This document shows positions 13,630 to 51,287 of a stretch of DNA of 64,000 nucleotides, piece after piece. The translations under genes and the position numbers were made by a program. The notes beneath the pieces were generated by a model, which saw nothing but the letters and a program-made list of their open reading frames with translations, made no database searches and was not told the DNA's origin. How positions within the stretch are numbered: the stretch's first letter is position 1; each line of letters opens with the position of its first letter. Source of the stretch: Firmicutes bacterium M10-2. Its GTDB lineage: Bacteria > Bacillota_I > Bacilli_A > Erysipelotrichales > Erysipelotrichaceae. The stretch is taken from positions 469,947-533,946 of the forward strand of contig KE159692.1 of NCBI GenBank assembly GCA_000403415.2. Direction: 5' to 3'.

Positions 13630-13698
13630 TAATTTCTCCGATCTACTGTCTGTCCTTCCCATTATAGCAAAAAAGTCTTATTTTACATAAGACTTTTC

Positions 13699-13889
13699 CA
13701 GGCTGTTGACAAAGTCGATTTTTCAAATCGGCTTTGTCACAGCTTTTTATTTTTCTCCCACAAATGAATAAAAAAAGAGCAATTTGAGGTATTTAAGTAC
13801 CTAATATTACTCTTTTTTTAGACCTTTTTACCCACTTTTATTTTATTGAAATTTAATTTTTTCAAAATAGGTAGTTTGTCAACACTCTG
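13699..13889 (+). mobile_element. Terminator-targeting MITE, copy 1 (191 bp)
   Basis: Non-coding element starting CAGGCTGTTGACAAA and ending with the complement of CAGAGTGTTGACAAA (13 of 15 terminal bases match). It is identical to copies 2, 3 and 5 in this window. Perfect 29-bp direct repeats flank it (13670-13698 and 13890-13918); each repeat is the whole terminator hairpin (GTCTTA / TAAGAC stem) of the O-antigen-ligase-like gene. It contains three internal hairpins, including one at the left end followed by TTTTTATTTTT. It has no ORF and must be moved in trans. Confidence 0.9.
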
Positions 13890-13897
13890 AAAAAGTC

Positions 13898-15118
13898 TTA
13901 TTTTACATAAGACTTTTCGTTTGCTTTTGAGCTATTGATAATTAACATGAAAATACATCCTGTCGCTAAAAAGTTCATCGTCACATCCAACAATCCGTGA
14001 ATAAAGAAAATCACGAAGAAACATAAGATCATCGCGAAAATTGCCGGATCTTTGTTTTTCTTATACGATCGGTAAATTTCTTTCCATAAACTAAAAGCGT
14101 ATCCGATTAACAGCAGCGTTCCGAAGATTCCGTATGAAAGAAACGTATCAAGCACAATATTGTGGGCGTGCGGCGCCTTATGACCCTTCAGCATTTTATA
14201 AACAAACCCATAAGTCTGCGGCCCTTGTCCAAACCAAGGATGCATGGTGAAAGCCAATAGAGCTGTATACCAGATTTCAAACCGTGCATTAAGAGTCGAT
14301 AATTGATCAAAGCGCGGAATCAGTTCCGGAAACATGAGCACCAAGACAAGGACTGCCATTTCGGCAATCATAGAAACAATAAACCAGTTTCTTTTTCGAT
14401 CGAACCAGAAAAATACCGGAAAGATAAACAAAAACGGCAACAAAGCAGTACGGCATCCCGTCAAAAGCATCATAAAAAAATTAAAAAAAGCCGTAATCAC
14501 ATAATAGAGCCGAAAGCCCATTTTTTTTGTTCGTATGAATTTGTACAAACAAAAGACGATCTCAAATTCAATGATTGTTGCGTAAAAATTCGCATTCATA
14601 AAGGTCGAATTGATTCGATCTTTCGGGGAATTCTGAACAACGAAATCAAAGAAAGCGTATCCTTTGCGAACCGATACTTTTTGAAATTCAAACAATCCGT
14701 AAATTCCCGCAAACCAAGAAAGGAAGATCAATTCGGAAATCACATATTGAAAGAGTTTAGGCGTTAAATGTTTTCGATAAAATGCCACAAAGAAACCGAT
14801 CAATATAAATCCTCCGACATTTAGCAGGCCGACCCAATTATGATGTCCCAGACTAACTCCAAGTTCCAGCACACAAAAAGAATAAAACCAGATGGCGCCT
14901 TTTTGATTCTTGATATCGCGAATTAAATTTCCTTTAATAGCCGCATACAATAGGATTGCCGATAAAACAGCCGCAGCGAACTGAAAAGGCAAAAATAAAC
15001 CGGCAATCGCAATCAAGATTGAACGTTCAAACGAATCAAAGCGAATCAGATCGTTTTTAACTTGTGTAATAGCATGTTTCATAGTTTTAATTATCTTAGA
15101 TGATCCCATTTTTTTCAA
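13898..15118 (-). CDS. O-antigen ligase/polymerase-like (Wzy_C) membrane protein
   Basis: Polytopic protein of about 10-12 helices with the O-antigen ligase signature region: TGCRTALLPFLFIFPVFF, a periplasm-like loop with NARFEIWYTALLAFTMHP, WFGQGPQTYG and HAHNIVLDTFLSYGIFG. Family members polymerise or attach glycans at the cell surface. In a Gram-positive this suggests attachment or polymerisation of a wall polysaccharide, in keeping with the acetylation operon beyond the tRNA. The start at 15118 is a TTG; ATG codons at 15109 and 15082 are alternatives, and none has a good ribosome site. Its terminator overlaps its stop codon and was duplicated by the MITE. Confidence 0.75.
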   Translation of the reverse strand: MKKMGSSKIIKTMKHAITQVKNDLIRFDSFERSILIAIAGLFLPFQFAAAVLSAILLYAAIKGNLIRDIKNQKGAIWFYSFCVLELGVSLGHHNWVGLLNVGGFILIGFFVAFYRKHLTPKLFQYVISELIFLSWFAGIYGLFEFQKVSVRKGYAFFDFVVQNSPKDRINSTFMNANFYATIIEFEIVFCLYKFIRTKKMGFRLYYVITAFFNFFMMLLTGCRTALLPFLFIFPVFFWFDRKRNWFIVSMIAEMAVLVLVLMFPELIPRFDQLSTLNARFEIWYTALLAFTMHPWFGQGPQTYGFVYKMLKGHKAPHAHNIVLDTFLSYGIFGTLLLIGYAFSLWKEIYRSYKKNKDPAIFAMILCFFVIFFIHGLLDVTMNFLATGCIFMLIINSSKANEKSYVK

Positions 15119-20773: not shown

Positions 20774-20815
20774 CAAAAATCAAAAGAAAAAAAGGAAGGA
20801 AAGTATTTCCTTCCG

Positions 20816-21006
20816 CAGGCTGTTGACAAAGTCGATTTTTCAAATCGGCTTTGTCACAGCTTTTTATTTTTCTCCCACAAATGAATAAAAAAAGAGCAAT
20901 TTGAGGTATTTAAGTACCTAATATTACTCTTTTTTTAGACCTTTTTACCCACTTTTATTTTATTGAAATTTAATTTTTTCAAAATAGGTAGTTTGTCAAC
21001 ACTCTG
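20816..21006 (+). mobile_element. Terminator-targeting MITE, copy 2 (191 bp)
   Basis: Identical in sequence to copies 1 and 5. Flanked by perfect 23-bp direct repeats (20793-20815 and 21007-21029), each a complete GGAAGGAAA / TTTCCTTCC hairpin. The copy at 20793 keeps the T-tract on the minus strand, so it is the terminator of the telA-like gene, whose stop codon lies at 21035. The gene-proximal copy runs straight into the element instead of a T-tract. Confidence 0.9.
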
Positions 21007-21034
21007 AGGAAGGAAAGTATTTCCTTCCGTGAAT

Positions 21035-24798: not shown

Positions 24799-24852
24799 TA
24801 AACAAAAGAAGCACCATACAAAAAAGAAAACGAGAGCTTTAATCGCTCTCGC

Positions 24853-25043
24853 CAGAGTGTTGACAAACTACCTATTTTGAAAAAATTAAATTTCAATAAA
24901 ATAAAAGTGGGTAAAAAGGTCTAAAAAAAGAGTAATATTAGGTACTTAAATACCTCAAATTGCTCTTTTTTTATTCATTTGTGGGAGAAAAATAAAAAGC
25001 TGTGACAAAGCCGATTTGAAAAATCGACTTTGTCAACAGCCTG
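24853..25043 (-). mobile_element. Terminator-targeting MITE, copy 3 (191 bp)
   Basis: Same sequence as copy 1 in inverse orientation (CAGAGTG end on the left). Perfect 22-bp direct repeats flank it (24831-24852 and 25044-25065), each a full CGAGAGC / GCTCTCG hairpin. Before insertion this was a bidirectional terminator: the left copy retains the T-tract for minus-strand transcripts, the right copy the T-tract for plus-strand ones. It lies between tRNA-Leu and the end of the ABC transporter operon. Confidence 0.9.
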
Positions 25044-25070
25044 CGAGAGCTTTAATCGCTCTCGCTTTTT

Positions 25071-30371: not shown

Positions 30372-31430
30372 ATGAAAAAAAGAACAAGTATTGCTGGGCT
30401 TGCCCTTGCTTTCAGCTTAGCTTTCTCATCCATTTCTCTTTATGCCCAAGAACAAAGTGCGGAGACCGAAACGACACCTGCCATTTATTCGAATTTGGCT
30501 GATCAAAAAAAAGCGTTGAGTGCGTATCCGATCATTGCCACAGCCGGATTCGACGCTTATAAAGACGAAACCGATGAAGGAAGTTATGTGATTCCCGGAT
30601 TGAACGGAACTCAAACTTTAAATGATGTCGGTGAAGTTGAAATGTGCGATCAAATGACCCCGCAAGGTGTCACTGTTGCGGACGACTACATTATAATTAG
30701 CGCTTATTGCCACGAACATAAACATAACAGTGTCCTTTACGTCCTTAACAAAAAAGATCACAACTATGTAAAAACAATCGTATTGGATGGAAAACCACAT
30801 GCAGGCGGAATCGCTTACGATTCTTTAAATCGTACTGTTTGGATTGCCACAAAAGATGAAAAAGAACATCGCGGAGGTGCTTCGTATATCAAACTTTCGA
30901 ATATCGACGCTTATGATTTTACCAAGGATAAAGCACCGCTGAAATACGATTACTCGATCGAAATTTCCCAATTGAAAGATGATTCCTTCATGACTTATTA
31001 TGATTCTCAATTGTATTGCGGATACTTTACAAAAGACGAAGGCAGCGTCAAAACGTATATTTATGATATCGATCCGAAAACAGGAAAAATCGACACTACG
31101 AAACGTCATGTTGCCAAAGCGTATGGATTCGATCAAATCGGAGACAACTGCCAAGGAATTGCGGTTGACGACAATTACATTTATCTTTCGGCAAGTGATG
31201 GACCGAAAATGAATTCGACATTGAGCATCTTCAAGAAAGGTCAGCATTCTTTATTAAATTCAAATGCTGAAAAAGTAATCACGCTTCCTCCTCGTCTTGA
31301 ACAAATTTATCCGACAGAAAACGGAGGATTATTAACCTTATATGAATCTGCTGCCAACCATTATCGCGATGAAGGAAGTACGGATATCGATCGTGTACTG
31401 ACAATGAATATCAGCGATCTTCTCAAATAA
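30372..31430 (+). CDS. Secreted beta-propeller-like protein of unknown function
   Basis: 352 aa with a clear Sec signal peptide (MKKRTSIAGLALAFSLAFSS, cleavage near SLYAQE). The mature part has repeated strands such as QGVTVADDYIIISAYC, HAGGIAYDSLNRTVWIAT and QGIAVDDNYIYLSASD, spaced like propeller blades. No enzyme motif is recognised; it may bind a ligand or wall component. AAGGAGATC precedes the ATG, and a TATAAT lies about 30 nt upstream. Its terminator hairpin has been duplicated by MITE copy 4. Confidence 0.72.
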   Translation: MKKRTSIAGLALAFSLAFSSISLYAQEQSAETETTPAIYSNLADQKKALSAYPIIATAGFDAYKDETDEGSYVIPGLNGTQTLNDVGEVEMCDQMTPQGVTVADDYIIISAYCHEHKHNSVLYVLNKKDHNYVKTIVLDGKPHAGGIAYDSLNRTVWIATKDEKEHRGGASYIKLSNIDAYDFTKDKAPLKYDYSIEISQLKDDSFMTYYDSQLYCGYFTKDEGSVKTYIYDIDPKTGKIDTTKRHVAKAYGFDQIGDNCQGIAVDDNYIYLSASDGPKMNSTLSIFKKGQHSLLNSNAEKVITLPPRLEQIYPTENGGLLTLYESAANHYRDEGSTDIDRVLTMNISDLLK

Positions 31431-31462
31431 CCGAAAACAGCCAGTTGGAATACTGGCTGTTT

Positions 31463-31651
31463 CAGAGTGTTGACAAACTACCTATTTTGAAAAAATTAAA
31501 TTTCAATAAAATAAAAGTGGGTAAAAGGTCTAAAAAAGAGTAATATTAGGTACTTAAATACCTCAAATTGCTCTTTTTTTATTCATTTGTGGGAGAAAAA
31601 TAAAAAGCTGTGACAAAACCGATTTGAAAAATCGACTTTGTCAACAGCCTG
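31463..31651 (-). mobile_element. Terminator-targeting MITE, copy 4 (189 bp, variant)
   Basis: Inverse orientation relative to copy 1. It differs from the four identical copies by two single-base deletions in A-runs (near 31526 and 31535) and one G-to-A change (near 31618). Perfect 28-bp direct repeats (31435-31462 and 31652-31679) each contain the entire AAACAGCCAGT / ACTGGCTGTTT terminator of the secreted propeller-like gene. The distal copy keeps the full T-tract. Confidence 0.9.
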
Positions 31652-31684
31652 AAACAGCCAGTTGGAATACTGGCTGTTTTTATA

Positions 31685-32467
31685 TTATCTATGCAAGTGG
31701 ATCAGGACAAGCTCTTTGGGATTGTGGAAACGCGGTATTTTGACTGTATTGGAGAGTCCTGCGCTAATGATCCATTCCCCTTTTGAAGTCATCACCAAGC
31801 CATGGGTATACTTTGGGAAAAGCCCTTGTCCGGGTGCGAATAGTGCCTTTCCGTTCCATCTCAGCTGTCCTCCGTGAGCATGACCTGAGCAGATCAGATC
31901 AAAATCAGCCACTTCAGGATCTTGCAGAAGATGTTCTATCACATATTCAGGATGGTGGACCATCAAAATTTTGATTCCTGATTCATGAGAAAAGCGTCTG
32001 CACCATGCAAAATCCGCTTTTGTGCTCAATCCTGCAATCAAAAGCGAATTTCCGTTAATCATGATTTCTTCCTGCGTGTTATCAAGCAAAGTGATATCGA
32101 ATTGTTTGAGCATCAATCGATCTTCATAACGCAAATACTTTTCATGATTTCCAAGAGAATAATATGTCGGTGCAATTTGCCGGCATCTTTGAAAGAAAAG
32201 CATTCCGCCTTCTTTCAGACCATCTCTTGCCAGAAAACGATAAAGGATATGATGAGGCTTTTCGATTGTTCGTTTCGATAATTTTCGAGTGCCTTTGTTG
32301 TGCCGTTCCAACATATCTCCCGTACACAAGATCAGATCCGGCTTGCAGGAAACAAGCCATTGGATTACTTCTTCATATTCTTGTTCGTGAAGATCCGAAA
32401 CATGCGCAATCGTCAGCGGCTCTTTGATCTTGTCATTGCGAACATCGTATTGAGTCAGCTTTACCAT
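31685..32467 (-). CDS. Metallophosphoesterase (calcineurin-like)
   Basis: 260 aa with the dimetal site motifs IAHVSDLHEQ (D, H), ILCTGDMLE (GD), YSLGNHEKY (GNHE), VHHPEYV and CSGHAHGGQLR (GHxH). It resembles YkuE/YaeI-type phosphodiesterases but has no signal or membrane anchor at its start, which is directly TQYDVRNDKIKEPLTIAHVS. Substrate unknown. It overlaps the gamma-carbonic-anhydrase-like gene by 7 nt, so it is co-transcribed. Confidence 0.88.
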   Translation of the reverse strand: MVKLTQYDVRNDKIKEPLTIAHVSDLHEQEYEEVIQWLVSCKPDLILCTGDMLERHNKGTRKLSKRTIEKPHHILYRFLARDGLKEGGMLFFQRCRQIAPTYYSLGNHEKYLRYEDRLMLKQFDITLLDNTQEEIMINGNSLLIAGLSTKADFAWCRRFSHESGIKILMVHHPEYVIEHLLQDPEVADFDLICSGHAHGGQLRWNGKALFAPGQGLFPKYTHGLVMTSKGEWIISAGLSNTVKIPRFHNPKELVLIHLHR

Positions 32468-43606: not shown

Positions 43607-43695
43607 TACTGAGTAATTCTTATTATTTCCGTATAAGTTGGTATATTTTGTCGTAGTCTTGATGATATATCCGATCGATCTCGTTCACGAGATCT

Positions 43696-43886
43696 CAGGC
43701 TGTTGACAAAGTCGATTTTTCAAATCGGCTTTGTCACAGCTTTTTATTTTTCTCCCACAAATGAATAAAAAAAGAGCAATTTGAGGTATTTAAGTACCTA
43801 ATATTACTCTTTTTTTAGACCTTTTTACCCACTTTTATTTTATTGAAATTTAATTTTTTCAAAATAGGTAGTTTGTCAACACTCTG
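43696..43886 (+). mobile_element. Terminator-targeting MITE, copy 5 (191 bp)
   Basis: Identical to copies 1 and 2. Perfect 20-bp direct repeats (43676-43695 and 43887-43906), each the complete GATCTCG / CGAGATC hairpin; only the right copy is followed by TTTTTT. This is the only copy whose CAGGCTG end faces the gene that the terminator serves (plsY); in copies 1, 2 and 4 the CAGAGTG end does. Confidence 0.9.
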
Positions 43887-43906
43887 CGATCTCGTTCACG
43901 AGATCT

Positions 43907-51110: not shown

Positions 51111-51287
51111 TTATTCTAATGTGATCGCACCTACTGGGCATACGCCTGTGCATGCTCCACAGTCAATGCATACATCAGCATCTACAAATGCTTTTCCTTC
51201 ATCATTCAATGTGATCGCACCTACTGGGCACACGCCTGTGCATGCTCCACATCCAATGCACATTTCTTGATCTACTTTTGCAGCCAT
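51111..51287 (-). CDS. 2[4Fe-4S] ferredoxin
   Basis: 58-aa clostridial-type ferredoxin: two CIxCGACTGVCPVGAITL units (first at 10-27, second at 40-57), each giving CxxCxxCxxxC, so it binds two 4Fe-4S clusters and carries low-potential electrons. The two halves are nearly identical at the DNA level too (17 identical bases around CACAGGCGTRTGCCCAGT). AGGAGGAAC precedes the ATG. It may feed electrons to radical-SAM enzymes such as MiaB, but that is only a positional guess. Confidence 0.96.
   Translation of the reverse strand: MAAKVDQEMCIGCGACTGVCPVGAITLNDEGKAFVDADVCIDCGACTGVCPVGAITLE

What the first reader, a model, noticed from the sequence alone, without database searches (positions are those of the whole stretch)
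31435..31679. Insertion severs the gene-side hairpin from its U-tract while the distal copy stays functional
Seen directly: the gene-proximal hairpin copy is followed by the element's CAG end after only 0-5 T, while the distal copy keeps its full T-tract (clear in copies 2, 4, 5; copy 3 is bidirectional). Inference: transcription may read through the first hairpin, include the whole element as a structured 3' UTR, and stop at the duplicated terminator. Hairpin duplication would thus make insertion nearly neutral for termination, which may explain the target choice, while adding a roughly 215-nt structured tail to the mRNA of the upstream gene.
Basis: inference. Interest (0 to 1): 0.7.

Follow-up and report, generated by a model that had tools for sequence, protein, structure and literature searches.

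The report
Terminator-duplicating mobile element carrying own terminators
A 190-base mobile DNA element has copied itself about 60 times into the 'stop transcription' hairpins at gene ends, duplicating each hairpin; the first copy met by transcription loses its tail, but the element carries its own stop signals, so each stop is probably reinforced rather than turned into a long RNA tail.

Summary
Window 31435-31679 is hairpin (28 nt), a 189-nt element, then the same hairpin. The genome holds 62 copies; 56 of 58 complete short copies are identical. Of 59 complete copies, 57 have direct target duplications, and 53 of those are a whole stem-loop centred on its dyad. Facing a gene end, the proximal hairpin keeps 2.2 T on average and the distal one 5.6; the distal tail is better in 66 of 68 cases. 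The element is a MITE (short non-autonomous transposon), very probably moved by a resident 1,646-bp IS1182-family insertion sequence with matching ends that also duplicates whole hairpins. The proposed ~215-nt tail ending at the distal hairpin is not supported: the element carries a terminator for each entry direction, a central hairpin with seven T (+ strand) and a right-end hairpin with U-tract (- strand). Both recur in most relatives across two families, with compensatory changes and a strand-specific wobble pattern. Full-length IS1182 relatives have similar inward terminators at most ends. Hairpin targeting by IS1182 elements was already published. New are the high-copy MITE, whole-hairpin duplication as its rule, and the conserved two-way terminators. 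Termination itself is inferred, not measured.

The parts
31435..31462 (.). Left copy of the duplicated target hairpin (TSD, 28 nt); proximal terminator for the + gene ending at 31430, now followed by CAG after 3 T
31463..31651 (+). MITE, 189-bp variant, ends CAGAGTGTTGACAAA...TTTGTCAACAGCCTG
31532..31580 (+). Central hairpin of the element, A-tract 31532-31537, stem-loop 31538-31573, T-tract 31574-31580: predicted intrinsic terminator on the + strand (bidirectional in this genome)
31594..31650 (-). Right-end hairpin of the element with inward U-tract on the - strand: predicted intrinsic terminator for leftward transcription; contains the right terminal inverted repeat
31652..31679 (.). Right copy of the duplicated hairpin (TSD), keeps the T-tract for rightward transcription; proximal copy for the - gene 31685-32467
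30372..31430 (+). Upstream gene (352 aa, no Pfam match), stop codon 4 nt before the TSD
31685..32467 (-). Convergent gene, calcineurin-like phosphoesterase (PF00149)
13699..13889 (-). MITE copy 1, TSDs 13670-13698 and 13890-13918 (29 nt)
20816..21006 (-). MITE copy 2, TSDs 20793-20815 and 21007-21029 (23 nt)
24853..25043 (+). MITE copy 3, TSDs 24831-24852 and 25044-25065 (22 nt)
43696..43886 (-). MITE copy 5, TSDs 43676-43695 and 43887-43906 (20 nt)

Best explanation
The feature is a 189/191-bp MITE, very probably mobilised in trans by an IS1182-family transposase. The transposase recognises a target palindrome by its structure and joins the element at the two 5' feet of the hairpin (most simply an extruded cruciform, where the feet are adjacent). 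Repair then duplicates the whole hairpin, whatever its length. Most strong intergenic hairpins are intrinsic terminators, so the element lands at gene ends. In either direction the first hairpin copy is followed by the element end instead of its U-tract and is weakened. The element, like full-length IS1182 relatives, carries inward-facing intrinsic terminators: the central hairpin for entry from the left and the right-end hairpin for entry from the right. Read-through should be stopped inside the element, with the distal hairpin plus U-tract as a third stop. Shown: anatomy, copy number, target duplications, near-identical ends with the IS, an empty site in a congener, conservation and covariation of the two hairpins. 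Inferred: mobilisation by this particular IS, cruciform targeting, and termination in the cell.
For: 62 copies, 56 of 58 complete short ones identical. 53 of 57 TSDs are a complete hairpin, nearly all centred on the dyad. A resident 1646-bp IS has tnp NF033551 IS1182 at 400 bits (cut-off 270), ends CAG-NN-TGTTGACAAA like the MITE, and whole-hairpin TSDs. IS1182 relatives in other taxa show the same ends and hairpin TSDs of 19-35 bp. The congener G002 has a single terminator at the syntenic site. 51 of 59 sites face a gene 3' end within 160 nt; 24 convergent versus 3 divergent. MITE relatives occur in 24 of 316 genomes, 18 of 80 genera and two families; a complete genome of another genus has at least 13 copies, 12 of 13 with perfect hairpin TSDs. 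Central hairpin: 6 of 8 pairs with two-sided changes, covariation score 0.687 versus 0.235 shuffled. Right-end hairpin: 6 of 12 pairs, 0.426 versus 0.166. Wobble-type cells in the + reading are G.U:A.C = 11:1 in the central hairpin and 1:5 in the right-end hairpin, as expected if the functional RNA strand is + for the first and - for the second. The terminator scan calls the + strand in 9 of 12 lineages and the - strand in 11 of 12 (slightly relaxed thresholds), and, at the strict thresholds, 21 of 28 IS ends against 0 of 168 interior control windows.
Against: No transcript data, so termination efficiency of any hairpin is unmeasured. The MITE ends differ from the resident IS ends at one position of 15 on each side, so another IS1182 transposase could be the mover. 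The helix arms for the covariation counts were picked by hand, and three lineages (G102, G161, G042) do not score a + terminator; G102 and G161 were left out of the central-helix count. Sequences in the wobble count are related, so those numbers are not independent. Four TSDs are short (9-15 nt) and are not whole hairpins. The near-identity of copies comes from a draft assembly with gaps.
Confidence: 0.8

Rival explanations
1. One reading: RNA polymerase reads through the first hairpin and the entire element and stops at the distal hairpin, giving a ~215-nt structured 3' UTR that may change mRNA stability.
For: The proximal hairpin is cut from its U-tract and the distal one has the better tail in 66 of 68 cases.
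Against: Terminator-like hairpins with long T-tracts lie inside the element and come first in both directions; they are conserved with compensatory change.
Confidence: 0.12
2. The internal hairpins are conserved for DNA reasons (transposase binding, a DNA hairpin intermediate) and their resemblance to terminators is secondary.
For: The right-end hairpin contains the terminal inverted repeat; IS ends of the same group also form hairpins.
Against: T-tracts follow the hairpins on the expected strand; wobble pairs are strand-specific (G.U in the + reading for the central hairpin, A.C for the right-end hairpin), which a DNA hairpin on both strands would not give. Counts are small.
Confidence: 0.2
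3. The element targets transcription termination itself (paused RNA polymerase or nascent hairpin RNA), not DNA palindromes.
For: 51 of 59 sites face a gene end.
Against: Insertions also occur in palindromes inside predicted ORFs (5 of 59) and in divergent regions (3 of 59); the TSD is centred on the DNA dyad; published IS1272 insertions also hit coding-region hairpins (PMC5678879, PMC4923244).
Confidence: 0.08
4. The hairpins flanking each copy are parts of the element, or chance or assembly artefacts.
For: A draft assembly with N gaps at some copies.
Against: The flanking hairpin differs at every site, is identical on both sides of one site, is present only once in the congener, and the same layout recurs in a single-contig genome of another genus.
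Confidence: 0.01

Closest known systems
IS1182 family insertion sequences, e.g. ISCbo5 of Clostridium botulinum group III / C. novyi (PMC3098183)
   Same: Same transposase family by name; inserts into hairpins at gene ends that probably act as transcription stop signals.
   Different: Full-length IS with transposase, 12-27 copies per chromosome; no MITE and no element-borne terminators described in the text read.
IS1272 and TnSha1 of staphylococci (IS1182 family; PMC5678879, PMC4923244)
   Same: Structure-directed insertion into stem-loops, several of them RNA-seq-confirmed terminators; the cruciform model in PMC5678879 (Fig 13, path b) predicts whole-hairpin duplication.
   Different: IS1272 replaces or partly deletes the hairpin and leaves no TSD; here the hairpin is duplicated.
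SPRITE, RUP and BOX repeats of Streptococcus pneumoniae (PMC3049150)
   Same: Small interspersed repeats near gene 3' ends; SPRITE resembles a Rho-independent terminator.
   Different: Different host; no whole-hairpin target duplication or IS1182 link reported in the passages read. Sequence homology was not tested here.
ISPpu9 and other ISs inserted in REP palindromes (PMC8450116, PMC1525189; abstracts only)
   Same: Insertion into palindromic extragenic sequences.
   Different: Targets are a repeated sequence family; here the targets are unrelated hairpins that share only structure.

Membership tests
IS1182 family (resident 1646-bp IS) | Transposase over the curated IS1182 cut-off | tested here: met
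   NF033551 400 bits, cut-off 270; DDE_Tnp_1_6 and DUF772
IS1182 family (resident 1646-bp IS) | Inserts into palindromes (reported for some members) | tested here: met
   IS copies flanked by identical hairpins; relatives likewise
MITE mobilised by IS1182 | Short, non-coding, terminal inverted repeats shared with an IS in the same genome | tested here: met
   189/191 bp; ends match IS ends at 14 of 15 positions; too short for a transposase, no ORF of 80 aa or more inside the copies
MITE mobilised by IS1182 | Same kind of target duplication as the IS | tested here: met
   Whole-hairpin TSDs in both
MITE mobilised by IS1182 | Transposition in trans by the IS1182 transposase | not testable with these tools
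   needs a transposition assay
IS1272-type stem-loop-replacing transposition | Target hairpin replaced, no TSD | tested here: not met
   57 of 59 copies have TSDs, 53 of them whole hairpins
Intrinsic (Rho-independent) terminator, for the two internal hairpins | Stable hairpin directly followed by a U-rich tract | tested here: met
   dG -17.9 and -26.8 kcal/mol with tail scores -5.90 and -5.69; scan calls versus 0 of 168 controls
Intrinsic (Rho-independent) terminator, for the two internal hairpins | Stops transcription | not testable with these tools
   needs Term-seq or a reporter
Known RNA family (Rfam) | Match at the gathering score | tested here: not met
   Only sub-threshold matches within the element

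The most novel reading that the evidence does not exclude
An order-wide lineage of MITEs that has kept, under selection, one terminator for each direction of entry. It acts as a self-insulating cassette that can enter terminators repeatedly at almost no cost to the host and adds a multi-stop terminator array at dozens of gene ends.
Probability: 0.45. Interest if true: 0.7.

Novelty: new variant of a known kind. Interest (0 to 1): 0.55.

Why it matters
It suggests how a transposon can reach about 60 nearly identical copies without apparent harm: it aims at hairpins by structure, copies the hairpin so that termination survives, and carries its own inward terminators, which in the full-length IS may also keep outside transcription away from the transposase gene. 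That makes a testable link between target choice, target duplication and element-borne terminators, and it gives a natural set of about 60 occupied terminators in one genome.

Tried and rejected
Rfam: no family at the gathering score within the element. No match of the MITE in plasmids or of its left end in viral contigs. RNAalifold on the plain MAFFT alignment gave a poor consensus because bulges differ between lineages; helix arms were realigned by hand, which biases towards pairing, so the slide and shuffle controls are quoted. Insertion orientation bias relative to a single upstream gene: 17 versus 10, not significant. The two type-2 IS1182 copies (L211, L212) do not have MITE-like ends of their own. 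The idea that the target is termination itself was rejected because ORF-internal and divergent palindromes are also hit.

Full report
What is there. The stretch 31435-31679 is exactly target duplication (28 nt), a 189-nt element, target duplication (28 nt). The duplicated sequence AAACAGCCAGTTGGAATACTGGCTGTTT is a complete stem-loop. The window holds five copies and the genome 62. Of 58 complete short copies, 56 are identical at 191 bp, and the window copy belongs to a two-member 189-bp variant.

Is it more than chance. Of 59 complete copies, 57 have direct duplications of 9-32 bp (median 24). 53 of the 57 fold at <= -5 kcal/mol, against 97 of 1482 same-length windows nearby (Fisher p about 5e-53). 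In 44 of 57 the centre of the duplication is exactly the centre of the dyad. The hairpins have no evident common sequence. 51 of 59 sites face a predicted gene 3' end within 160 nt; 24 lie between convergent and 3 between divergent genes; 5 fall inside predicted ORFs (gene calls are simple longest-ORF calls). In a genome of the same genus the syntenic gap between the two convergent genes has one bidirectional terminator and no element.

The U-tract claim. For 68 gene-end/hairpin pairs the proximal copy has a mean run of 2.2 T and the distal copy 5.6; the TransTermHP-style tail score is better distally in 66 of 68. The effect is symmetric: a rightward transcript loses the T-tract at the left copy, and a leftward transcript loses it at the right copy. 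It is the necessary result of duplicating the stem-loop without the flanking tracts. Some proximal copies keep Ts inside the stem and may still terminate partly.

What moves it. The genome has about ten copies or derivatives of a 1,646-bp insertion sequence with ends CAGACTGTTGACAAA, one base per end different from the MITE ends. Its transposase scores 400 bits against the IS1182 family model (cut-off 270). These copies also sit in perfectly duplicated hairpins. IS1182 relatives from Erysipelotrichaceae, other Bacilli, Clostridiales and unnamed bacteria show closely similar ends (CAGNNTGTTGACAAA or CAGNNTGTAGACAAA) and, in most loci where both ends were readable, whole-hairpin duplications of 19-35 bp. 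Duplication of the whole hairpin is therefore a habit of this IS1182 subgroup. Published work already described IS1182 elements in terminator hairpins (ISCbo5, PMC3098183) and IS1272/TnSha1 that replace or partly delete hairpins, some confirmed as terminators by RNA-seq (PMC5678879, PMC4923244). PMC5678879 proposed that attack at the 5' feet of an extruded stem-loop would duplicate it. The present data fit that branch of the model.

The element's own terminators. The central part, AAAAAAAGAGTAATATTAGGTACTTAAATACCTCAAATTGCTCTTTTTTT, is a bidirectional terminator-like hairpin (dG -17.9 on +, -15.4 on -; tail scores -5.90 and -5.45). Read leftward, the right end forms a hairpin of -26.8 kcal/mol followed by UUUUUAUUUUU (tail -5.69). 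Both lie between the two target copies, so polymerase entering from either side meets one of them before the distal hairpin. At the window copy the predicted 3' ends would be near 31580 for the + gene and near 31600 for the - gene.

Conservation. Relatives of the MITE were found in 24 of 316 genomes of the order, in 18 of 80 genera and two families (some of the weakest hits may be remnants). A single-contig genome of another genus has at least 13 copies about 70% identical, 12 of 13 with perfect whole-hairpin duplications. Across lineages the central stem changes from GAGTAAT/ATTGCTC to AGGTGATT/AATCACCT while pairing and the T-tract persist (6 of 8 pairs with two-sided changes; covariation 0.687 versus 0.235 +/- 0.044 shuffled; slid registers at most 0.302). 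The right-end outer stem changes from GCTGT/ACAGC to GACCG/CGGTC (6 of 12 pairs; 0.426 versus 0.166). Wobble-type cells in the + reading are 11 G.U to 1 A.C in the central hairpin and 1 G.U to 5 A.C in the right-end hairpin. This is what RNA pairing on the + strand and on the - strand respectively would give, and it argues against a purely DNA role. The sequences are related, so the counts are suggestive rather than a formal test. A simple terminator scan (dG <= -6, tail <= -4.2) finds the + terminator in 9 of 12 lineages and the - terminator in 11 of 12. At stricter thresholds (dG <= -7, tail <= -4.6) it finds an inward terminator at 21 of 28 ends of full-length IS1182 elements (several of them close relatives of each other), against 0 of 168 interior windows.

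Mechanism. Shown: anatomy, hairpin duplication, IS1182 relatedness of the ends, conserved hairpins with T-tracts. Inferred: structure-directed attack at the feet of an extruded hairpin; element-borne terminators stop read-through that results from the detached U-tract; in the full-length IS the same terminators shield the transposase gene from the neighbouring gene's transcription.

Novelty. Hairpin and terminator targeting by IS1182 elements is known. A high-copy MITE of this family, with whole-terminator duplication as its rule and a covarying terminator for each direction conserved across two families, was not found in the papers searched, although that library lacks most subscription journals. 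It is classed as a new variant of a known kind.

Noticed in passing
L094 (G000:C16 about 231788-233948): Two MITE copies about 1.9 kb apart share one hairpin duplication (AAAGAAGCACACCATTCCTAATGTGCTTCTTT) at their outer ends only, as expected for a MITE-bounded composite transposon carrying other DNA; a 10-N gap interrupts the first copy.
   Followed up: partly
L130 (G000:C1 about 356089-358300): Two inward-oriented MITE left ends around a 2-kb N gap share an outer hairpin duplication (AGGTCATGTATACCATGACCT): a second possible composite or an unresolved assembly gap.
   Followed up: no
L120, L122 (G000:C12 104930-105751 and 455321-455877): 822-bp and 557-bp internally deleted derivatives of the 1646-bp IS1182 element, each with a whole-hairpin duplication: MITE-like intermediates.
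   Followed up: partly
L032, L033, L060 (G000:C1 135125; C1 161458; C12 560075): Short target duplications (10, 15 and 9 nt) cover about one arm, or loop plus one arm, of the target hairpin, suggesting cuts at one foot and at the loop.
   Followed up: no
MITE positions either side of the central hairpin, e.g. window 24853-25043: Two short GTGG(G) motifs flank the central hairpin in nearly all lineages; possible internal transposase sites or RNA motifs.
   Followed up: no
51118-51275: Tandem 68-nt direct repeat (87% identical).
   Followed up: no
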